Assembly: GCA_036362985.1 (NCBI GenBank)
Contig: JAYGXS010000004.1
Location: forward strand, 25,520,603-25,584,602
Direction of reading: 5' to 3'
Length of the DNA stretch: 64,000 nucleotides
From: Ligula intestinalis
Lineage: Eukaryota; Platyhelminthes; Cestoda; Diphyllobothriidea; Diphyllobothriidae
Shown: piece by piece, positions 5,910-64,000 of the stretch
Layout: each line of letters starts with the position of its first letter
Numbering within the stretch: position 1 is the first letter of the stretch
Notes under the pieces: model-generated
Database searches by the model: none
What the model saw: only the letters and a program-made list of their open reading frames with translations
Told to the model about the DNA's origin: nothing
Program-made: the position numbers and the translations under genes

Positions 5910-6110
5910 AGCACTTACTTGCTCGTTGGTCGATTGACTCATTTTCGAAATCTAGATTTCTTCATCTAGGATTGAGATATATTCGCTTGATGACAGCAGA
6001 CGAGACAGAAATTGCAATCACAGCTGCTCCTGTCCTCGTTGCTAACAGTTCTCGATTACAGAGATCGTTCATTGTTCTGTGACTGCCTTCGTGGGCTTTA
6101 CGGAAACTCC
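5910..6110 (+). mobile_element. Degenerate hammerhead SINE-like unit (family R)
   Basis: A B-box-like TTTTCGAAATCT at about 5944 is followed by a decayed hammerhead core at 5987. It matches the better copies at 20150 and 23755 in motif order: B box, ATTGAG block, GATGA core, GAAA. A 17-base string here, CTTCATCTAGGATTGAG, also recurs in the F13 repeat at 41503. Confidence 0.55.
5987..6019 (+). ncRNA. Decayed hammerhead ribozyme motif
   Basis: The core reads TTGATGA (first core C changed to T), then a 14-nt helix II region, then GAAA at 6008-6011. Helix III is the palindrome ATTGCAAT, where the 20250 copy has ATGGCCAT, so pairing is kept by compensating changes. Stem I pairing is not evident and the first core base is mutated, so cleavage is unlikely. 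Confidence 0.45.
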
Positions 6111-13897: not shown

Positions 13898-14165
13898 GTA
13901 CATGACATGGTGAATAAAATTGGTCAATTAATTACAGCGATTATATGATCGTCAGGTTAGGGAAAGGGGGAGGGGGAGGAAAAGGGTAAGGGTAATTAAG
14001 CAGCTGAGTTTTTCCTCGTCTCCTGAACGCGGGCGCCTGCGCGGGTAGGACGCTGGTTGCCATGCCCAGATGAGACAGGGGGGATGTTCTCGCGGTCTGC
14101 GGATTGAGTTCTGTATGTCAGCCGCGCAGCTTGCGTTTGATTATTCTCCGTAGATTCGTCTTCTT
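13893..14165 (-). repeat. PLE-1 terminal repeat (pLTR), 3' copy
   Basis: About 273 bp that includes the last ~57 codons of the endonuclease ORF plus the 3' UTR. It contains a G-tract (13960-13986, plus strand). It matches 16756-17032 in reverse complement with few mismatches. Confidence 0.88.
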
Positions 14166-16750
14166 TGGCTACAGTAGGTGTTGGGTTTCCGCGTGCAGTC
14201 GGCCAAGGGAGGCCGATGGCTTGAATTTGCGCGTTTTGACAGCATAGAATGGGTTTTGCTAGCCGGATTGCCACTGCTTCTGCTGTGGCTAACACCCGTT
14301 TCCGCAGGCCTTTGGATAAGTGCGTTGGCGTGCGGTAAATGACCCGAAAGGCTTCACTCGCGTCCACTTGGTGGTTTTTATCAATTAGGTGGGCGAGGAT
14401 TGAGCTTGAGTTCGGTCTATTCTCCCCTCTGCTGAGCCAAGCTGGTATGTGCTCGCGCATTCTCTTCTCCAGACGTTGCGTTGTTCGGCCAGTATAGCCC
14501 GCTCCACAGGAACAGGTGAACGAATAGATGCACATAGATGTGGCCTGAAACGGTAGTCTGTCCTTACCTCCCATTCGTAGAAGGGGAGAATTAGTGAAGA
14601 GAACCCGCAAGTTTGCAGCCGGGAAGGCATTCATAACCGCTGTCTTCAGGAGCCTTCTTACTAGTTCACTCGTTGCGTCTCCAATTAACGGCAGTCTTAT
14701 AAACAGATCTTTCTTTTCCGCCGTTGCAATTGTGACCTTTGGGGCACGTTCCTTGATGTTCTGAAGGATGAACCGTTCCGGATAACCGTTTTCTTGGAGT
14801 GTATCCTTTAGTTGCTGCAATTCTACTTCCACTATTTCAGGAGAGCAGATACGGCGTATTCTGGCTGCCATTCCCTGGACTTAGTTCCGTTTGACGTTAA
14901 GGGGGATGAAACTCTGAAAATTAACGCATTGCCCAGTCCAGGTTTTCTTTCTAAAGAGTCGGCGTTGTATTGAGCCATCTTCTTGTCTGTGTAAGAGGAC
15001 GTCTAGGAAAGCGAGTTCCTCGTTCGCCTCTGTTTCCACTGTAAATGTGAGTGCTGTGTGGGCGGTATTAAATTTTTGGACTAGACCATCGATATCAGCG
15101 GTCTTCTTTGTCAGGCAAAAGATGTCGTCCACATATCGACCATCGAACTTAAGGTCATTGATAGTGTCTTTGAGCTTCGTTTCCTCGATCTTGCCCATAA
15201 AGAAATTTGCCAGGAATGGTCCAAGTGGTGAGCCCATGGCCACTCCGTCAATTTGCCTGTATAACTGGCCCTTACAGATAAACTGTACATTTTGTGTACA
15301 GCAAGTCAGTAGATCTTTCAGCCTCTCCACTGTCATCCCTATATGGTAGTGTGTTTCCCGTATGAAGTCGCATAGATATTCTATGGTTTCAACTACCGGG
15401 ACGTTGGTGAACAGTGAGGATACATCTTATGACAGCATCATCGTTTCGCCAATATTAGTATCCTTGACAGCCTCCACGAATTCAAACGTNNNNNNNNNNN
15501 NNNNNNNNNNNNNNNNNNNNNNNNNNNNNNNNNNNNNNNNNNNNNNNNNNNNNNNNNNNNNNNNNNNNNNNNNNNNNNNNNNNNNNNNNNNNNNNNNNNN
15601 NNNNNNNNNNNNNNNNNNNNNNNNNNNNNNNNNNNNNNNNNNNNNNNNNNNNNNNNNNNNNNNNNNNNNNNNNNNNNNNNNNNNNNNNNNNNNNNNNNNN
15701 NNNNNNNNNNNNNNNNNNNNNNNNNNNNNNNNNNNNNNNNNNNNNNNNNNNNNNNNNNNNNNNNNNNNNNNNNNNNNNNNNNNNNNNNNNNNNNNNNNNN
15801 NNNNNNNNNNNNNNNNNNNNNNNNNNNNNNNNNNNNNNNNNNNNNNNNNNNNNNNNNNNNNNNNNNNNNNNNNNNNNNNNNNNNNNNNNCACGAATTCAA
15901 ACGTGTCTTTCAGGCTTCTTGGGTACAAGCGGCTCTGAAGTGGTTTTAACTTTTCGGCAAGCCATTTTGCCACGGCGTGGTACGGTGAGTTTCTCATGTC
16001 CAAGATCGGACGGTGTGGCACACCTTGTTTATGGATTTTCGGGAGGCCATACATTCTTGGTATTGTAGTACCAATCGGCCTTATTTCCTCCAGCTCCTTG
16101 TCTGATAAACGTCCTTCTTTGTGCAGCTCTTTTAGTAACTTTGTCAGTTTGTCTTCAACAGCTTCAGTCCTGTCCTTGTATTTATCGGATTGTGAAAATT
16201 TTGTGTGATTTGATAATATTTCTTGAAGTTTTGTCACATAATCTTTCTTGTCCATCAACACAATCCCCGAACCCTTGTCCGGTCTTGTAATTAATATGTT
16301 TTCATTTCGGCGCAGCTCCTTGAGACTATCGAGATGAACCTTGGTCAGGGGGCGTATGGATTTCGGAGCCTTTCTTAAGTATTGATGACAGCAATTGACA
16401 AGAGTCGATTTCAGATAATCAACTTCCCTGGCCTCTGAGGGTTTTAGGTCCGAGGTCTGACTGAAGAGACTCTCAAATTGTATTTCCGGGTCTAGCTGTT
16501 TTTGCTTCCGTTGTGGGACGCAACACTTAGGACCAAGAGATAATACTTCTAGGAGCGTCCTGTTAAGATGTAGTGACGAAAGGTTATGCACGTATTGCTC
16601 TGGATTATTCGGAAGCGCTGTCTGTGCTTTCACTGGTTGAAGACTTCGTAGGAGCTTGGTCCACTTGACCTCGGTTCGCCTATTTCTGATTGTCTTTACG
16701 TAGTTCTCGAAGGCTCGTCTCTCAGAATTTTCAAGATGGTCGAGGACGAA
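13996..16750 (-). pseudogene. PLE-1 reverse transcriptase / GIY-YIG endonuclease
   Basis: This is the polyprotein that copies the PLE RNA and nicks target DNA. The N-terminal portion runs to the LITRPDKGSG block (about 16290-16250), and RT motif B is MGSPLGPFLANFFMG. The catalytic YVDD is at 15124-15135. The C-terminal endonuclease has MCIYSFTCSCGAGYTGRT with a Cys pair, a downstream R-x-REH and a late AEAVAIRL carrying the expected Glu. The frame is broken by TAA at 15427-15429 inside RT motif A (Leu in PLE-2) and TAA at 14881-14883 (also Leu in PLE-2). An N run at 15490-15889 interrupts the assembly. No frameshift is needed to read through once the duplicated 15-base gap flank is counted once. 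Inactive as it stands. Confidence 0.87.
15490..15889. other. 400-N assembly gap, probably spurious
   Basis: The gap is exactly 400 N. The 15 bases CACGAATTCAAACGT immediately precede it and immediately follow it. Alignment to PLE-2 needs no extra residues at this point, so the two contig ends most likely overlap by these bases. Confidence 0.85.
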
Positions 16751-16755
16751 TCTAC

Positions 16756-17032
16756 GAAGACGAATCTTCGGAGAATAGTCAAACGCAAGCTGCGCGGCTG
16801 ACATACAGAACTCAATCCGCAGACCGCGAGAACATCCCCCCTGTCTCATCTGGGCATGGCAACCAGCGTCCTACCCGCGCAGGCGCCCGCGTTTAGGAGA
16901 CGAGGGAAATCTCAGCTGCTTAATTCCCCTCACCCTTTTCCTCCCCCTCCCCCTTTCCCTTTCCCTAACCTGACGATTATATAATCGCTGTAATTAATTG
17001 ACCAATTTTATTCCTCATGTCATGTACTGGCC
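16756..17032 (+). repeat. PLE-1 terminal repeat, inverted 5' copy
   Basis: Reverse complement of 13893-14165. It ends at TACTGGCC, exactly where the hammerhead core begins in the other copy, so it lacks the ribozyme core. Confidence 0.87.
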
Positions 17033-19339: not shown

Positions 19340-19800
19340 GTGCCACAAAACTGTAGACCACGAAGTAATCCGGCCGGCTAATAGAAGATAGACGTATCCC
19401 AATGGTTATAAACTAGTAAATAATAAGAGGCTTAGAAGGTCAGAGTGTTATGAATAATTTATTAAGTGTATAAGGAGTAGAGTATGAGTAATGAATAACT
19501 GGCTCCCGAACAAGTGCAGTCCAGGGTCGAATTTCGGCAGTGAGGTCGCTGTGTTCGGAAGTCTGCATGACAGGCAGTGAGGTAGCCGCGTTCAGGGGTG
19601 TCTGAGCGTAAGCGGTCACCACACTTATCCGTTGTGAACTGGCCTTTGAAATTAGTTTGCTAGTTAGGACAGACAGAGGTTAAACACACGTCCGTGACCT
19701 TAACCTGCCTTTGATACGCTCTGTTGCGCAAGTTCATAGTGGACACGAGTAACAGATATGCCTCACGGGCGTGCAAGCAAAGCATGGCTTAGAATACAAG
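19340..19800 (+). repeat. Family F6 dispersed repeat, copy 1
   Basis: Shared order with 52900 and 21725 (minus): ACGTATCCCAATGGTTATAA, GGGTGTCTGAGCG or its variant, TGTGAACTGGCCTT, TTAGGACAGACAGAGG, GGACACGAGTAACAGATATG. It is about 460 bp, non-coding, of unknown class. Confidence 0.75.
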
Positions 19801-19944
19801 ATCACTACCCAACCTTTGAATCAAATGATCCTTTCAGTTCTCAGCTAACCCCGGCCTAGTATTCAGGGCTGATACTAGCATACTGTGGCAGTACAATGTT
19901 CGAAAACATAGGGTTCCCCAAATCAGGAGGAAGGACAGACAGTT

Positions 19945-20030
19945 GGATATGCAAGCCTTTACTGACGCTGAAACTGTGTAGGAGTCTAAGCTCCCTTTGC
20001 TTTGTCGGATCCATTTCATCATATCATCCT
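19945..20030 (+). repeat. Isolated tail of hammerhead SINE family R
   Basis: CTTTGCTTTGTCGGATCCA at 19995-20013 is identical to 20298-20316 in the neighbouring R unit. The spacing is 303 bp, as if two units once lay in tandem. The upstream ribozyme part is not recognisable. Confidence 0.45.
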
Positions 20031-20149
20031 AATGACTATGTGACATTTTGGCGGTTTTACGTTGTAAGCACCTGGGCAAAGCGGAACTTAAGTGTTCCTC
20101 TACTAGATCGGCGAGACACATATATTTATCGTCTTCCCGATCTCAACTG

Positions 20150-20360
20150 ACAAAGCAGGGAGCTCGTGGACTCGTGGTAGAATATTTAAATCAATGACTA
20201 AACGTCCCGGGTTCAAATCTCGAAGGTTCCTACCATTGAGATTAAGTATGACTGGCTGATGACGGCTAACGAGCCAGAAATGGCCATTCCGGTCTGCCTT
20301 TGCTTTGTCGGATCCACTTCCCCAGTCTAAACAGTGCTTGTACTCGGAACACAAGAATTC
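20150..20360 (+). mobile_element. Hammerhead-bearing SINE-like unit (family R), best copy
   Basis: An A-box-like TGGTAGAATAT (20175) and a good B box GGGTTCAAATC (20209-20219) lie about 34 bp apart, as in a tRNA-type pol III promoter. A hammerhead motif follows at 20250-20294 and then the CTTTGCTTTGTCGG tail. A pol III promoter plus hammerhead is the layout of schistosome Sm-alpha retroposons; comparison with metazoan retrozymes is also apt. Non-coding. Confidence 0.75.
20250..20294 (+). ncRNA. Hammerhead ribozyme, type I, well-formed
   Basis: Stem I GACTGG pairs with CCGGTC (six pairs, one G-U). The core CTGATGA is at 20256-20262. Helix II is GGCT/AGCC with loop AACG, although its core-closing pair is C-A. 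GAAA is at 20277-20280. Helix III is the palindrome ATGGCCAT, giving only two pairs and a GGCC loop in a monomer, and the predicted cleavage follows AT-T at 20288. Very short helix III with a palindromic loop is characteristic of retroelement hammerheads thought to act as dimers. Confidence 0.78.
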
Positions 20361-21724: not shown

Positions 21725-22175
21725 TATATATTATGTGAGATACGCTAGCCACCTCGTATTCTAAGCCATGTTTTTCTCGCATGCCTTTGGGGCATTCGCG
21801 CCCTCTCTGGCTCTCGTGTCCACCAGCACGTGCGCACCAGACGGTGTCAAAGTTCCGGTTAGGGTCAGGGACGTCCGTCTGTCCTAACTGACCAATCACT
21901 TCTGAAGGCCAGTTCACAAAGGACCATAGTGTGGAGACTGTTGACGCTCAGACACTCCCGGAGACGGCGACTTCACAGCGGACTCGGTGATCTCGCCTCC
22001 GGAATGCGATTCTCGACTCGGCCCGTTCACCGCTGGACTGCCCTCACTTAACTATTACTCATTTTCTACTCCTTTTGTACTTAGTTAAATTACTCATAAA
22101 ACTCTGGTCTTCCACACCTTGTCTTATTTACTAGGTAATAACCACTGGGATACGTTCTATCATCTATTAACCGGC
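21725..22175 (-). repeat. Family F6 dispersed repeat, copy 2, minus strand
   Basis: It is the reverse complement of the 19340 and 52900 copies. Visible plus-strand blocks are CATGCCTTTGGGGC, GTCTGTCCTAACTG, GGCCAGTTCACAAAGGACC and CACTGGGATACGTTCTATC. Confidence 0.72.
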
Positions 22176-23754: not shown

Positions 23755-23945
23755 ACACTTAATGAACAAATGTTGTGGCTTCGGATCTCAGGTGATCCAT
23801 ACGCAAGATTGGATATGACTAACTGATGACGGCTAATAAGTCGGAAATGGGCATTCCGGTCTCCCTTATCTTTGTCAGTTTCACTGTATTGACACAACCT
23901 CGTCCATCTATCACATTCCCAGGTACTGTTTATTTTATCGGGCAT
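23755..23945 (+). mobile_element. Hammerhead-bearing SINE-like unit (family R), copy 2
   Basis: It shares the TATGACTxxCTGATGACGGC block and the CATTCCGGTCT block with the 20150 unit and a CTTTGTC tail. Its tRNA-like head is decayed. Confidence 0.65.
23817..23861 (+). ncRNA. Hammerhead ribozyme, family R copy 2
   Basis: The core CTGATGA (23823-23829) and GAAA (23844-23847) are intact. Helix II is CGGCT/AGTCG, five pairs including one G-U, better than in the 20250 copy. Helix III is ATGGGCAT. Stem I is damaged next to the core: GACTAA faces CCGGTC, so two G-C pairs are lost. Confidence 0.68.
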
Positions 23946-33945: not shown

Positions 33946-33998
33946 GGCTCTTTTGTCTTGACGTTGCGTAGGCGTGGGTCTAGCTTCTAGACTTTGGC

Positions 33999-34165
33999 TG
34001 GTTGATGTCTGCAAACAGTGCAGAAGTGGTCATTCCAGTCTTCTTGAGGCCGTTAGTCACTTTTCGATTTTTGGCTGCCAGCCAACGTGGAGTCTAGACA
34101 GGAGTTACAAACCGAGAATAAATACTTCAAAGCTCGTCCTGCAATCGGCATAAGAGTCGATCAGT
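33999..34165 (+). repeat. Isolated copy of the TGTCTGCAAACA unit
   Basis: It matches 29969-30160: GTCTGCAAACAGTGCAGAAG, CATTCCAGTCTTCTTG, TTTTGGCTGCCAG, TCTAGACAGGAG and CAAAGCTCGTCCT in the same order. Confidence 0.7.
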
Positions 34166-34695: not shown

Positions 34696-37195
34696 TTAGT
34701 CTTGGGAATGGGGGCTTGGGGTTTGGGTTGATAAAAAGTGAGTAGTGACAGGGTAATTAGGAGAAGGAGAGGGAAAGGAACGCGTGGAAAATGCTGGTAG
34801 TTCTGCGGCCGTTGGCCATGCTAGGCTTGGGGCCTGAAGAAGGTTCTTCTGCGCGCACAACACCGGCTTTATCAGGCGAATGGCCGTGGCCTCCGCTGTT
34901 TCCAGCAGCCGTTGACCCAGGGACTTTGGGTAATCTGGTGAGCCCTTGTAGATCACCTTAAAGGCTTCGTTCGGGTCAACACGGTGTCCAGAGTCCATCA
35001 TATGAGCAAGAATGGAACTGTTGATGTTCCTGACTTCGCCTTTGTTAAGCCATGCTGGCAGATGCTCCCGTATCCTCTTGGATAAGCGCCGGCTCGCGCG
35101 ACCTATGTAACCTGCACCACAGGAACAAGTAAATGAGTAAATGCACATGGAAGTGGTCTGGGCTGGCAGCTTATCCTTACCTTCGCCGTGTATGACCGGG
35201 TTTGTTGAGAATAACACCCGAAATTTCGCCACTGGGAAGGTTCGTGATACGGCTTGGTTAAGGCGTCGGCTTAACAGTTCACTTGCTGCGTCCCCTTGAA
35301 AGGGGACTTTGAGGAAAATGGTCTTCTTTTCCACGGTGGGTGTTAAGGGTTTGCGTTCTCTCTCCATCATGTTCTTCTGAATAAACTTTTCAAGGTACCC
35401 ATTCTCTCGAAGCAGGTCCTGGATCTTCGTGAGCTCTCTTTCGATAGTATCGTCCGAGCAGATTTTTCTAGCCCTTCGCGTTAAGCAGCGGACTAGATTA
35501 CGCTTCTTCTGGATGGGTACAAAGCTGTGAAAGTTCGTGTACTGTCCGGACGAGGTTTTCTTTCTATTAACGCTCCTTCGGAGGCTACCATCAGGTCGTC
35601 TGCTTAGGAGAAAGTCCAAGAACGGAAGCGAACCTGCCGTTTCCATCTCCAATGTGAACTTTATGGAGGGATGTGTTTGGTTGACAGTATTTAGAAGCGA
35701 GTCTATCTTAGTGTCTGCTGGGCCGATAGCAAAGATATCATCGACATAGCGACTGTAGTGCTTAAATTCATGAATCTTGTCGCTAAGTTGAAACTTCTTC
35801 AGCTTGCCCATGAAGATATTTGCTAGGAGAGGCCCAAGGGGGGAGCCCATGACGACGCTGTCTATCTGTCGATATAGTTGGTTATCAAAAAGGAACTGCA
35901 AATTTAATGTGCATTTTAGTAGCAGTTCCTTTAGGGCTTCTATTGGAATTCCTACTTCTGTCTGATTTGTCAATAGGAAATCGCAGATGTAATCTACTGT
36001 TTCCACGACCGGGACGTTCATAAATAGCGACGAGACGTCTAAGGAGAGCATCATCCTGCCATTTAGGTTTATGTCCCTGATGTCGTCAATAAATGTGAAC
36101 GTGTCTTGATAGCTCCGTGGTACTAGTTGCTGCTGCAGCGGTTTGAGTTTATCCGCTAACCACTTAACTATCGTATGGTAGGGCGAGCAACGCATGTCCA
36201 AGATCGGACGAACTGGCAGGCCATCCTTGTGGATTTTTGGGAGGCCATAGAGACGAGGGATATGCGTACCTACTGGCCGGAGACGTTCGAGGTCACGCTC
36301 AATTATGAAACCTGCCGTTTGGAGTCAGTCAAGTGTGCCTCTTCTTCATCCGTGCGATCCTTCTCTTTGTCTACTTTCTTAAACTTCGTCTGGTCTGACA
36401 AGATAGTATGCATTTTTCGAAGGTAATCCAACCTGTTCATTATGACGACACCTGCTCCTTTATCAGGTCTAGTAATCAGGATGTCTTTATTTTCTCGCAA
36501 CTGCTTTAAGTTCTTCATGTGTGATTTTAACAGCACTCCGCGACTGATTGGTCTCTGATTCAAGTACTGGTAACTACAATTCACTAGTGTCGATTTTAAA
36601 TGCTGGATACTTTCAGTTGAGATAGGTTTTAATTCGTAAGTTTGGTTGAACAGGTTTTCAAACTGGGTTTCCAATTCTAACTGATTAACCCTTCGAGCAG
36701 GTATGCAGAATTTTTTGCCAAGAGATAATGCCTCAACTGTTGTCTTATCAAGCGTCAAAGAGGAATGATTGTACACGTACCGATCTGGGTCTTTAGGCAG
36801 TCTTGCCTGGGGTTTCCTTTCATGCACCCTTTGTAGCAGTGACGATCTTTTTGCTTCTCCCCGTTTCGTTTCTATGATCTTTGTGTAGCTAATGAAGTCT
36901 CGCCTTTCTTCGTCATTGAGGGTGTCCAGAACGGCAGCGCGCTGGCACACGTGATGCTCTAGTTCTCCCATCCTTATCCGAGTTCTTTCTAACTGGTTTT
37001 CAGCTTATCTTCTTAAGGTGTCAGTAGTGATAGCAGTACGATTGCGACGTAGAGCTCTCCAGTATTCATTTGGATACTCATGTCTTTCCATACAGTCCCT
37101 AGTAAACTTGGCCAAAACCTTCGCCTCTGCAAGCTTGGTGTTGAAACGCAGGTACCCATTGAGTGCCTTCAACACCGCGGGATCCTTGGACTGTT
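34696..37195 (-). pseudogene. PLE-2 reverse transcriptase / GIY-YIG endonuclease
   Basis: Reading minus: an N-terminal PLE segment (about 37195-36972, including FNTKLAEAKVLAKFTRD) with one TAA at 37005-37007, and the RT N-terminus to about 36320. A one-base frameshift follows near 36314-36325, then a continuous frame to the stop at 34696. RT motif A is SLDVSSLF, motif B is MGSPLGPLLANIF, and the catalytic YVDD is at 35737-35748. The endonuclease has MCIYSFTCSCGAGYIGRA with intact YIG, R-x-REH and TAEATAIRL. The C-terminus is Pro/Ser-rich. Only one frameshift and one stop separate it from a full-length frame; function is not expected from this copy. Neighbours are other repeats, no host gene. 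Confidence 0.88.
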
Positions 37196-44867: not shown

Positions 44868-45085
44868 CACTTTCTTTCACAATTTGCGCCTCGTGACACG
44901 GTTCAGCCGCTTCCACCTCATATATTTTATTAAGTCCCCTATTATTGGGGGGCGGGTAGCAGATCTGAATAATCTAGATAACCCGGTTATGAAAAATTCG
45001 TGGCCTCCGTGGGATTCGAACCCACGTCATCAGGGAAAGACATTAGTGCACCCAACGCTCTACCGATTGAGCTACGAAGGCGAAA
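44868..45085 (-). mobile_element. tRNA-derived SINE (family S), full length, minus strand
   Basis: The head reads GCCTTCGTAGCTCAATCGG, then a GTAGAGCG A-box end, a long anticodon region, and a perfect T arm GTGGGTTCGAATCCCAC. Acceptor arms pair only if offset by one base. The body includes CCCCCAATAATAGGGG and the tail GTCACGAGGCGCAAATTGTG. Body and tail recur at 45533 in the opposite orientation. Confidence 0.82.
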
Positions 45086-59467: not shown

Positions 59468-62400
59468 TTAGAACCACGACTTCCGGATCTTCTTCAGATA
59501 CCGGACTGTGGCAGAGGGTCTTCGGATGGTTAGGTCGATTGGCGCTCTCAGTCTGTAGTCGACACCAAACTCCTGAACTCTGGAAACCATCTCGGCTGCA
59601 CATTCCATCAGGTGTTCGTTGGTCTCTTCCTCCCCACAAGCTGCACATGTGGAATCATCAGTCAGATTGTACCGCTTCCTGATGTGATTCAGCTTTGGAC
59701 AATGCCCGGTCCTAAATCTCACTAGGGTCGTTCTATCTAGCCAAGTCATTTTCTTTTCTTCATCCCAGTTGATGGCCGCGTTCATGTGTCAATTGTGTCC
59801 TGGGGGTCATTCGTCTGACTGCTTTCATTGTTGCCGCAAAGGATGTCGGTCTACCGTCCGGTTCAGTCCTGGCCGCTGATGCTTCAGCGTCTGCTTGTTC
59901 ATTCCAGGGGATACCCACGTGGCTGGGAATTCACGCAATTTCCACTCTCCTTCCTGTTGTGGCTCTCTCCGGAACATTCATCACTTGTTGTACCAACGGT
60001 TTCTGAAGATCTTCTCCTGTCCCGAAGTTCTGTAGGGCATCTACAACGGATTTACTGTCAGTAAGGATTCTAGCAGAACTCTAATCGTCGGGTGGGTGCT
60101 CTAGCCATTCCGCCGCCATCAGTAGGGCTAGCTTCTCGGCATCAAAGGATGAGCTGTAGCATACGCCCCTTCTCCTGGACGTTGCAATTGTTGAGTAGTT
60201 ATTCCAACTTCCTTTCGTCACCACGACTCCCGCATCTCCCTGTCTTCATCCATCATTCGCCGACTAGTCGGTATAAATAGTCAGGGACGTTTTCGGTAGG
60301 GAATTGAGCTCATCCTCCATTCGCTGCCGATTTTCTACCATCTCTGCCTTGCTGCAGAGATCTTCAAAATTCCTTAGGAGATTGATGTTGGGTCATCGCC
60401 ATGGGGCTAGCGTGTTTGTAGCGCAAACCTCTCTAGGCATCTCCGAATCCTCTCCCAGAGTTTGGTGCAAGCATCTGTGCGCATTCTCCCTCTAGGCTGA
60501 GGTCCGCTTTAGCCGGGTTGGCTACTGCTTTTCGGCCATCTGTTTGCGGAGACTTTGTGCGGGGAGTCTTAGGCTGTGTTCGTAGGCCCTGATGGCTTCA
60601 AACTTGCCCCTCTCCCTTATCATCTGGATATCGGCCTCTAGTAGCACCATCTCCGTCGGAGATGAGATTGGGAGGCTCTTTGTAGTTCGAGCTGCTTTCA
60701 GGTTCAGGCGTTCCAACCTGTCAATTCGTGAGCGGCAGATCCACGGCATCCATGCTGCTGATCCGTTCTCAATCACCGGCCGCACACAGGCAGTGTAGAC
60801 TTTTTTGATGTCCTCCGGTCGCCATCCCCAGGTTGTTCCACCTAAGGCCCTCGTCCTATTAAGTCGCTTCTCCGACTTTTCTAGGACGAAATCAGTGTAT
60901 CTATTAAACGTTAGCCCCGAGTCATACACCACTTCAAGGAATTTCGCCGTCGGTCTTTGGATGATTTGCAATCCATCAACCTCGATCGCCCTGACTCCTT
61001 TTCTTTCACTCGGGGTCGTACTGAACACCATTAACTCCGTATTTTGGACGTTTACTTGCATCTTCCACTTTCGGCTCCATTGGACCATCATTTCTGTCGA
61101 AGTCTGCACTCGCTGGATAGCCCTGTCGGGGTTGGTATCTTGGCGCCATACCGTAGCGTCGTCCGCCAAAAGGCTTATCTCAACGTCCTCTCAGATGCCA
61201 TCCCCAAGGTCATTTATAAAGATGTCGAAAAGGAGGGGAAGAGAACTGCTCCTGTGGGAGGCCCCTTGTAAGTCTGAACTCCATACTGAGGCGTCCGTTG
61301 TATCGCACATGCATTAGACGGTTGGTCAGCCAGCTCTCGATCCAAATCTGTAGGCAATTTGGTACCTTCATTTTTGCCATTTTCAGCGCTAGACCGGTTC
61401 TCCATACCGTGTCGTAGACTTTTTCGAAATCGATGAGAGCCAAAGCTATCCTTCTACTTGGCTTACTATGGAAACTATCTGATACTGACTGAGATAGTCG
61501 AATCAGTTGGTCCTCAGTGCTCCTCATCTTCCGGAAACCGGCCTGGTAGTCTACCAGCTTCTGGTTGCCTTCAACCCAGTGTCGGAGTCTGCGTTCGACC
61601 ATTCGTTCACAGACCTTTCCCACCACAGTGGTCAGACTGATGGATCTGTACGATTCCAGTTTCCCCGCGTCTTTGCCGGCCTTCAAGATTGGTACTATAA
61701 TGGCTGTTTTCCAGCTCTGGGGTATTGCCTTATCCCGCCAGCTCTGATTTATAATGCTTAATAGAGTCTATTTGTTATTTGTAGATAGGTTTTTTACTGC
61801 CTTGGGGGGGGCGGGATTTCATCCGCTCCACCTACCTTTTTGTCCTTAAGTTGTTTTAAGGATTCAGTCAGTTCGTTGATAGTAAACTCCCGTCCGTAGG
61901 AGTTATTGTTCTCAAGGTGTAGGGCTTCTTTCCGTGCTTCCACCGCGTATCCCTTCATCGCTCTTTCATTTTTGGCCAGTCTCAGTCGGCTCACACTGGC
62001 ATACTGACTTCCAAAAACGTTAACCTTCTGTTTGTCGGTGACGAGGCGGTGGTCACCCTGCAGGATAACATGGTCAGACGTTGACTTGTTTTTCCTTTGT
62101 AGCATATGAATAGTACTCAACATTTTAGATGGGTCATCGTCCTCTCTGACAGTGTCGAGATACGCTCGCCATGTCCTTGTCCACTCTTCGCTTATAGTCG
62201 TTCTTACTTATTTGCATGCCTGGGTCCACTCCACTGTATTCCTCTTCCCCTCACTGGCCAGCCTATCTCACTCCTTTGTGACCTCCTCAACTTTTGCAGT
62301 CCACCATACGCTAGCAGTTCGGCGAAGCCCTTCCATGATTGCTTCAGTGAAGGTTCCACCGCTATCTGCAATCTTTGATGTCTGGGGTGGATGGTTGTGT

Positions 62401-64000
62401 AGATAATTTTCGGTGATTTCGTTGAACTTTTCCCAGTCCACTACGGATATCTTCCAGCGGAACAGATTAATCTTGCTGGTTGATTTATCGTCTTGCTGTG
62501 CCCTCTGGATGACAATGGGTTTGTGGTCGGAGCCGGACGTGTTGAGTACTGTCCAGGTTGACTCTGCTGCCATTGTCGCTGTAGTGATGGATATGTCCGG
62601 AGATGTGCCTGAGCGTCCGCCATTTCGGAGACAAGTTATGCATACCGGGTCATTCAGGATGGCAAGCTCTTCCTCTCTTATCCGGTCTCCTATTCTTCTC
62701 CTTCGCTTGTCTTCTCTCACTTCGTCCTGCCATAGTCCCGAGTGCGCATTGAAGTCACCGAGCTACATCATTCTGGGGTGACTAGGGAGTATATGGCTAT
62801 TAGGTTCTTCAATGAAAGTCCCATCATTTCTAGCACGTATTGGCAGGATATATATGCTGGTAATCTCCAGATCAGGTTGTCCTTCGTGAACCAGTCAGAT
62901 GTGTTGAAGTTCTTGGATGCTGGTTTGTTGGGCTCGTACCAACTCATGAGGGATGCTATCTCCGATAATCGTCATCAGACCTCCTCCGAAACCCAATTCT
63001 CTGTCCCGTCTTAGGGCCTCGTATCCTGGGAATGTAGGCGTCAGTTGGGTATCTCTGAGTTTCATCTCCTGAAGGCAGCACACGTCAATATTCTGTTCTG
63101 TGAGTAAATTGCACAGCTCCGTGACTTTGGGCATCAGGCCATCGTAGTTCCATTGCAAGATGCGTAGATAGCTGGGGTCCTTTATTCTCTCATCAGTAGT
63201 CACCTGTTGGTTGGGTTTGAGTTCCACAAGGCAAGCGTGGCACTGCCAGGTTTCCTTCAAAGCACTTTCTCAGGCGGGTCTCTCCAGCGAAGAGCACTTG
63301 CGATCGAACACTTTCAGACATCTCTCAAATCGGAGTCCTCTGTTTCGGGAGTGTATCAGGTTGTTGCATTTCCTGCATCTTTCCTGTTGGGATACTCTCC
63401 GTTTGGTAAGATTGGGATTTGATGGACCACCATGTTCAGCGCATCTCCATTCTCCATGTTCTTTTGTTACTTGTGTGAGTTTCCAACGGGTCATACCAGA
63501 GCATGATTTATGGCAGCAAGCAGAACAGTCAGGACATTGTAATGGTATGATGTTACCCGCTATAGTCGCCTCACAGTTGCAGCAGTAGTTTCTGTTGAGG
63601 TTGGTGGATATGGCTGGGAGGGATGCGGAAGACACTGAGGTCCCTGCAATTGGCTGATGCGAGTGAGCGGGCAACACTGCATGTTCGAGCGAGGGTCCGA
63701 CACAGGTCCTATGGGTATAGCCAGCACTCGTAGTCGTACGAGCAAGGCCTCTCGTACCCGTGGGGTGTTCCGGTTAGGTCGACGTCTCTGCGCTGCGCTT
63801 GTGGTACTGGATCTCATTCTTTTCCTTTGTGGATGTGGCCTGCCCTTCTGTCATCTGTAAACATTTTAGATGCTCCCAGGCTCTACAAATGTCGCACCGG
63901 GCACTTCCTTTGTGTGCTGACTTTCCACAGCAAGGACAAGGCCACCTGGTTCCTGGATTCATTTCTACGTCTCCTGAAAGCTCCAAATGCCTTCTAGGCC
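59468..64000 (-). pseudogene. LINE polyprotein, decayed
   Basis: Minus-strand reading in several frames. Two Cys/His fingers follow the 2A-like peptide: CPCCGKSAHKGSARCDIC (63900s) and a PHD-like CCNCEATIAG...QCPDC...WRCAEH (63595-63430), then a third Cys-rich stretch. The APE endonuclease has LRILQWNYDG, CCLQEMKL, GFGGGLMT, LGDFNAHSGLW (62760), GTSPDI and SDHKPI. RT has SYRSISLTTVVGKVCERM, ALIDFEKVYDTVW and catalytic LLADDATVW (about 61165). RNase H has YTD, DAEKLALLMAA and TDSKSVVDAL (60075-60035). The C-terminus has CAACGEEETNEHLMEC. Breaks include stops at 63270-63272, 62763-62765, 60264-60266 and 60246-60248, plus several frameshifts. Inactive. Confidence 0.86.
63948..63986 (-). other. 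2A-like peptide coding segment, last residue Thr
   Basis: The minus strand encodes LELSGDVEMNPGT, preceded in frame by PRRH to the window edge. DVExNPG is the 2A ribosome-skipping signature, which normally ends in Pro; here the codon is ACC instead of CCN. 2A-like sequences are known at the N-termini of several non-LTR retrotransposon groups. The Thr would be expected to abolish skipping in this copy. Confidence 0.78.

What the first reader, a model, noticed from the sequence alone, without database searches (positions are those of the whole stretch)
20250..20294. Hammerhead ribozyme joined to a tRNA-type promoter in a short dispersed repeat
Seen: A/B-box-like motifs about 34 bp apart, then CTGATGA and GAAA with pairable stems I and II and a palindromic two-pair helix III (ATGGCCAT). 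Known: schistosome Sm-alpha retroposons and metazoan retrozymes combine small repeats with hammerheads of this short-helix-III kind. Inference: the window holds a non-autonomous ribozyme-bearing family that may form circular or multimeric RNAs.
Basis: partly seen in the sequence, partly recalled or inferred. Interest (0 to 1): 0.88.

Follow-up and report, generated by a model that had tools for sequence, protein, structure and literature searches.

The report
Tapeworm SINE carrying a hammerhead ribozyme
A short mobile repeat, whose ribozyme core occurs more than a thousand times in what is likely a tapeworm genome, joins a tRNA-like start to a hammerhead RNA motif that is predicted to cut itself, most likely when two copies pair, even though a normally near-invariant base pair of the ribozyme is mismatched in most of the copies examined.

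Summary
It belongs to a high-copy, non-coding retroposon with a unit of about 305 bp: a 28-nt core pattern matches 1,057 times in the 644 Mb source genome, reversed control 0. A covariance model built from copies outside the window finds it at 75.6 bits, with clear relatives at 23812 and 33991. The unit has a tRNA-like head, the hammerhead and a tail. Copies are 5'-truncated, head-to-tail multimers (18 of 77 loci) or head-to-head pairs (16, against 0 tail-to-tail), and 3' ends are enriched at (AT)n tracts. In copies retrieved with the hammerhead masked, 11 core positions are better conserved than the other 22. Against simple activity: stem II starts with a C.A mismatch in 80 of 100 listed copies, Rfam misses the motif, and insertion 5' ends do not pile up at the cut. 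Helix III is the palindrome AUGGCCAU, and two copies fold best as a double hammerhead. Best reading: a retrozyme-like SINE predicted to cleave mainly as a dimer. The host is likely a diphyllobothriidean tapeworm, not a schistosome. Cleavage and circular RNA are untested.

The parts
19991..20320 (+). Main element copy: one unit (303 bp, tail to tail) plus 27 bp of the next, 5' end at unit position 6 (unit counted from the predicted cut)
   Evidence: 27-nt tail repeated at 19991 and 20294, 303 apart; aligns to the tripled unit of L017 over 338 columns at 79%; boundaries
20167..20177 (+). A-box-like motif TGGACTCGTGG in the tRNA-like head
   Evidence: by eye against a recalled consensus; sequence
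20210..20219 (+). B-box-like motif GGTTCAAATC in the tRNA-like head
   Evidence: by eye against a recalled consensus; sequence
20250..20294 (+). Type I hammerhead: stem I 20250-20255/20289-20294, core 20256-20262 and 20277-20280, stem II 20264-20267/20272-20275, palindromic helix III 20280-20287, predicted cut after 20288
   Evidence: model R1 match 20245-20298, 75.6 bits
20263..20276 (+). Stem II with its C20263/A20276 mismatch at 10.1/11.1
   Evidence: first stem II pair reported unpaired
23761..23885 (+). Second, older copy of the element (head remnant, hammerhead and tail; C-G at 10.1/11.1, two unpaired positions at the inner end of stem I)
   Evidence: 80% identical over 80 bp; 77% to the L017 unit; model R1 23812-23865, 64.6 bits
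33991..34044 (+). Third copy, hammerhead region only, degraded core (TGATGTC)
   Evidence: model R1 33.9 bits, E 2.6e-7
5976..6029 (+). Borderline degraded relative
   Evidence: model R1 16.7 bits, E 0.019

Best explanation
This is a tRNA-headed SINE of the retrozyme type that carries a type I hammerhead predicted to cut its own RNA mainly as a double (dimeric) hammerhead, and it is likely copied by target-primed reverse transcription. Shown by sequence: a unit of 303-311 bp (tRNA-like head, hammerhead, tail, a second segment); over 1,000 core copies; head-to-tail multimers up to about three units; variable 5' ends with clustered 3' ends; (AT)n beside many 3' ends; head-to-head pairs. Inferred: RNA polymerase III starts at the head. 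A helper reverse transcriptase, not identified, starts copying where the RNA's AUCAUAU meets a nicked AT tract, at times from both broken ends, which would leave head-to-head pairs. In a multimeric transcript two hammerheads would pair through AAUGGCCAUU, which would steady the core despite the C.A mismatch at the base of stem II, and would release a unit of about 305 nt that a host ligase could circularise. Cutting and circles are untested.
For: Copy number with a zero control. Model R1 from 38 copies outside the window finds the window copies. Unit, boundaries, 18 of 77 loci with more than one unit, 16 head-to-head and 0 tail-to-tail pairs, (AT)4 or longer within 20 nt of 14 of 66 3' ends in the two main end classes against 0.5% of random places. 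Core constraint: with the hammerhead masked, 27 usable copies show 0.946 mean identity at 11 core positions and 0.860 at the other 22 (permutation 1.5e-4), with N7 at 0.81; unmasked retrieval gives 0.947 against 0.830 in 42 copies. The youngest subfamily (15 copies, median pairwise identity 0.958) is among the copies that keep the same core. Two copies fold best in a double-hammerhead arrangement, -44.1 kcal/mol against -16.3 for one. Precedent: an axolotl retrozyme with a U.U mismatch at the base of stem II and a two-pair helix III cleaves 22% alone and much better as a dimer (PMC7229834, section 15).
Against: C.A at 10.1/11.1 in 80 of 100 listed places and in 102 of 119 aligned copies; PMC3088659 section 8 says that the U.U mismatch supports more cleavage than any other mispair there, so C.A should be worse. 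No Rfam hammerhead match at this motif. Insertion 5' ends do not pile up at the cut: 1 genome match, 7 bases away. Covariation is weak: score 0.200 against 0.180 +/- 0.011, 20 of 500 shuffles reach it; RNAalifold predicts no pair. The monomer's best fold is not the hammerhead (-16.3 against -10.8 kcal/mol), and the dimer fold pairs A14 with U17, which the active form does not (the last point recalled). ARAGORN finds no tRNA in the head. 12 pieces are plain 156-198-bp monomers from head to tail (my count), so multimers are not required for spread.
Confidence: 0.55

Rival explanations
1. The hammerhead is a catalytically dead relic. The element is an ordinary tRNA-derived SINE that inherited a once active ribozyme and keeps it as a shared core domain for another reason, such as recognition by the helper reverse transcriptase.
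For: C.A mismatch as the commonest state; no pile-up of 5' ends at the cut; weak covariation; a competing monomer fold; plain monomers are common.
Against: Better conservation of exactly the catalytic positions with N7 left free, and the same core in three subfamilies with different tails.
Confidence: 0.32
2. The hammerhead cuts efficiently as a monomer, as Sm-alpha's does, and its cut products are what is copied.
For: A predicted helix I internal loop (UAU/U) and the UAAUAA loop II could make the usual loop contacts (by eye, recalled). One 30-bp insertion between AT tracts starts exactly at the predicted cut (L076).
Against: Monomer fold disfavoured; mismatch; two-pair helix III; no pile-up at the cut.
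Confidence: 0.07
3. The repeat is a terminal-repeat piece of the Penelope-like elements that lie in the same window, which are known to carry minimal hammerheads.
For: Two Penelope-like elements in the window; Penelope-like elements carry minimal hammerheads (PMC6155905 passage); five of the Penelope pairs listed are also head to head.
Against: BLAST finds unit-like pieces in only 3 of 30 Penelope loci (L051, L053, L058), at no constant place, plus a weak profile match in L031; the Penelope 3' end is a different sequence and is not followed by AT tracts as a rule. The unit has no reading frame tie to them.
Confidence: 0.03
4. A chance resemblance in unrelated repeat sequence.
For: The bare core pattern alone is near chance.
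Against: Full descriptor and family counts, core constraint.
Confidence: 0.01

Closest known systems
Sm-alpha / Sj-alpha SINE-like retroposons of Schistosoma (PMC2770079 and PMC8490949, passages seen; Ferbeyre 1998 and Laha 2000 seen only as cited)
   Same: Non-coding, tRNA-related SINE-like element with a type I hammerhead, several hundred bp at most, very high copy number.
   Different: Sm-alpha is related to tRNA-Gln-TTG and found by Rfam's hammerhead (about 38,500 blastn candidates); this family's head is not recognised by ARAGORN, its hammerhead is missed by Rfam, has C.A at 10.1/11.1, and the host is likely a cestode. Homology with Sm-alpha was not tested (no Sm-alpha sequence was fetched).
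Metazoan non-LTR retrozymes, especially axolotl HHR_Amex2 (PMC7229834, abstract, outline, passages and section 15 seen)
   Same: Type I hammerhead in head-to-tail units of 170-400 nt; mismatch at the base of stem II; two-pair helix III with a four-base loop; predicted dimer action.
   Different: U.U in axolotl, C.A here; this unit has a tRNA-like head; circular RNA is shown there and untested here; here most loci hold less than one unit.
Rfam Hammerhead_HH9 (RF02275) and the second hammerhead repeat of this genome
   Same: The second repeat shares the GGCUAAUAAGCC stem II with this family and matches HH9.
   Different: HH9 match is 27.2 bits at best against a gathering score of 52; the second repeat has longer helices, another flank and A.C at 10.1/11.1 in 7 of 10 copies seen.
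Penelope-like elements with minimal hammerheads (PMC6155905 passage)
   Same: Minimal hammerheads in a retroelement; head-to-head pairs also occur.
   Different: This unit has no reverse transcriptase and does not flank the Penelope genes sampled.

Membership tests
Type I hammerhead ribozyme | CUGANGA and GAAA core with A15.1-U16.1 and H17 | tested here: met
   Present in the window copy and constrained in the family
Type I hammerhead ribozyme | Three helices, open at helix I | tested here: met
   Stem I 6 pairs, II 4, III 2-3 in the window copy; 85.8% of cells paired in 38 copies, against 22-45% when partners are slid (that control favours the consensus structure)
Type I hammerhead ribozyme | Paired base of stem II (10.1-11.1, normally G-C) | tested here: not met
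   C.A 80, U-A 15, C-G 1, A.A 2, C.U 2, G-C 0 of 100 listed places
Type I hammerhead ribozyme | Matches the Rfam hammerhead models | tested here: not met
   No match at the site, E up to 10, nor at this motif in 8 other loci, E up to 5
Type I hammerhead ribozyme | Self-cleavage | not testable with these tools
   Needs an in vitro assay
Metazoan non-LTR retrozyme | Hammerhead in head-to-tail units of about 170-400 bp | tested here: met
   303, 308 and 311 bp spacing; more than one unit in 18 of 77 loci
Metazoan non-LTR retrozyme | Circular and linear unit-length RNA | not testable with these tools
   No RNA data held
SINE | tRNA-type internal promoter head | tested here: inconclusive
   A- and B-box-like motifs by eye; ARAGORN reports no tRNA in 13 loci
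SINE | Non-coding, dispersed, clustered 3' ends with variable 5' ends | tested here: met
   1,057 genome matches
Sm-alpha SINE | Sequence homology with Sm-alpha | not tested
   No Sm-alpha sequence was fetched
Penelope-like element | Unit flanks Penelope reverse-transcriptase genes | tested here: not met
   Pieces in 3 of 30 loci within 1.5 kb, at no constant place

The most novel reading that the evidence does not exclude
This flatworm lineage has rebuilt the hammerhead core around a protonatable A.C contact: both hammerhead repeats seen here replace the near-invariant G10.1-C11.1 pair, one with C.A and one with A.C, and the family works as an obligate, palindrome-joined double hammerhead whose cutting depends on pH and on dimer formation.
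Probability: 0.2. Interest if true: 0.72.

Novelty: new variant of a known kind. Interest (0 to 1): 0.52.

Why it matters
It would extend hammerhead-bearing SINEs from schistosomes to, likely, tapeworms. It offers over a thousand natural copies for asking how a hammerhead lives with a mismatch at one of its most conserved pairs. The head-to-head pairs and AT-tract ends give a readable record of how such elements insert.

Tried and rejected
Rejected: chance motif; piece of the window's Penelope elements; a canonical Rfam hammerhead.

Negative or without result: a pile-up of insertion 5' ends at the cut (1 match, starting at unit position 8; by eye 4 breaks within about 8 bases of the cut among the loci held, no more than a rough even spread would give). 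Covariation. ARAGORN on the heads. The helper element was not found. Never answered by the genome machine: RF00163 in the whole genome, the copy number of the second hammerhead repeat, and a similarity search with a whole unit.

Rows dropped: L009, L016 and L029 (overlap other loci); 4 of 42 unselected copies by length before alignment A1; 6 of 33 flank-retrieved copies whose core could not be placed without gaps at 20 of 33 letters, a filter that leans somewhat towards conserved cores.

Full report
What is there. At 20250-20294 (+) the window reads GACTGG-CTGATGA-C-GGCT-AACG-AGCC-A-GAA-ATGGCCAT-T-CCGGTC: a type I hammerhead with a six-pair helix I (one G.U), a four-pair helix II, a helix III closed by the palindromic loop GGCC, and a predicted cut after T20288.

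It is a high-copy family. The window is C4:25520603-25584602 of a 644 Mb, 2,377-contig assembly. A 28-nt core pattern occurs 515+542 times and 0 times reversed; a looser pattern occurs 572+577 times, 0 reversed. I read 78 family loci on contig C1 (30 given, 48 fetched by place), dropped 3 that overlap others, and added the 2 window copies: 77. A covariance model built from 38 copies outside the window finds three clear window copies (20245-20298, 75.6 bits; 23812-23865, 64.6; 33991-34044, 33.9) and two borderline ones. The main window copy is old: 79% identical to the unit of L017.

Anatomy. The unit is 303 bp (window), 308 (L015) or 311 (L017): a tRNA-like head with A- and B-box-like motifs, the hammerhead, a tail ending GTCGGATCCACT, then a second segment. 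GACAAAGC in the head and GCTTTGTC in the tail are complementary. ARAGORN calls no tRNA, so tRNA origin rests on the boxes and on a variable-arm-like hairpin seen by eye. 3' ends cluster at unit positions about 31-43 and about 147-156, both at the same motif CCATCATAT; a third, older family ends at about 21 with another tail. 5' ends vary. Of 77 loci, 18 hold a piece longer than 308 bp, the longest 911 bp. Sixteen adjacent pairs are head to head and none tail to tail. (AT)4 or longer lies within 20 nt of 10 of 46 and 4 of 20 ends in the first two classes, 0 of 27 in the third and 1 of 25 others, against 0.5% of 20,000 random places. From this I infer target-primed copying that starts at AT tracts, at times from both broken ends. 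The helper is unknown.

Is the ribozyme under constraint? Masking the whole hammerhead and retrieving copies by flanks alone gave 103 copies, 33 of them not selected by the core pattern; 27 of these could be placed without gaps (6 dropped). Their 11 catalytic positions average 0.946 majority identity, the other 22 average 0.860 (permutation 1.5e-4). N7, the free core position, is 0.81. An unmasked retrieval gives 0.947 against 0.830 at 58 other positions in 42 copies. Copies from one locus are not fully independent, and the 20-of-33 placing filter leans towards conserved cores. Covariation is weak. The youngest subfamily has median pairwise identity 0.958 (15 copies).

The mismatch. Of the 100 places listed, 10.1/11.1 reads C.A in 80, U-A in 15, C-G in 1, A.A in 2, C.U in 2 and G-C in none. 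Of 119 aligned copies 102 are C.A and 8 U-A (78 of the rows were selected by a pattern that fixes the C at 10.1). Position 11.1 is A in 27 of 27 flank-retrieved copies. PMC3088659 (passages and section 8 seen).1-11.1 the most conserved pair after 15.1-16.1, finds a natural U.U there surprising, and notes that U.U supports more cleavage than any other mispair, which speaks against C.A. PMC7229834 (abstract, outline, passages and section 15 seen) reports an axolotl retrozyme with U.U there and a two-pair helix III that cleaves 22% alone and much better as a dimer. For two copies of L017's sequence the best fold is a double-hammerhead arrangement through AAUGGCCAUU (-44.1 kcal/mol; one copy -16.3, in a non-hammerhead fold; the drawn hammerhead -10.8). 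In that dimer fold A14 also pairs with U17. This is why I favour dimer action; it is a prediction.

Footprints of cutting. One 30-bp insertion between AT tracts starts exactly at the predicted cut (L076 821-859), and L006 starts there too. But a genome-wide pattern for AT tracts joined to the element near the cut gives a single match, starting at unit position 8. So there is no general footprint of cutting.

Host. The Penelope reverse transcriptase at 34696-36324 has as best hits proteins of Sparganum proliferum and Spirometra (55-76% among the first six), then Dicrocoelium at 53% (120 of 460 listed). The host is therefore likely a diphyllobothriidean tapeworm. This rests on one mobile-element protein.

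Literature. Sm-alpha of S. mansoni is a SINE related to tRNA-Gln-TTG with a hammerhead, about 38,500 blastn candidates (PMC2770079 passages). Retrozyme-like repeats are mentioned for platyhelminths in general (PMC7229834 passage). A search for 'hammerhead ribozyme' with 'cestod' gave 3 papers; by title, abstract start and, for PMC10886601, passages, none describes a cestode hammerhead. In the 15 papers listed the hammerhead term occurs 0 times. PMC12249497 (passages) has 0 uses of 'ribozyme' for Spirometra. Most subscription papers are not held, so this does not show absence in print.

Verdict. It works, most likely, like a retrozyme-type SINE. I do not file it as an active hammerhead: the paired base of stem II was tested and not met, and cleavage could not be tested.

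Noticed in passing
L001, L005, L008, L015, L017, L065, L086, L098 (8 of 75 family loci); L050: A second hammerhead repeat (CTGATGA-A-GGCTAATAAGCC-C-GAAACAG...) that matches Rfam HH9 below its gathering score (up to 27.2 bits) often lies beside these elements, next to the AT tract they sit in; 7 of 10 copies seen have A.C at 10.1/11.1.
   Followed up: partly
window 13996-16870 and 34696-37004, minus strand: Two Penelope-like elements (RVT_1 hits for both; the first holds the window's run of N). Among the 81 genome matches of the second, five pairs lie head to head like the SINE pairs.
   Followed up: partly
window 60522-62762, minus strand: Broken non-LTR retrotransposon: RVT_1 and Exo_endo_phos_2 hits in separate frames.
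   Followed up: no
window 45002-45081, minus strand: tRNA match with a 15-base insert in the anticodon region (Rfam RF00005, 40.5 bits); ARAGORN does not report it.
   Followed up: no
window 19574-19807 and 21746-21979: Long diverged inverted repeats (arms 50-53 nt, 77-78% complementary, about 2 kb apart) flank the main element copy, as if it sits inside another repeat.
   Followed up: no
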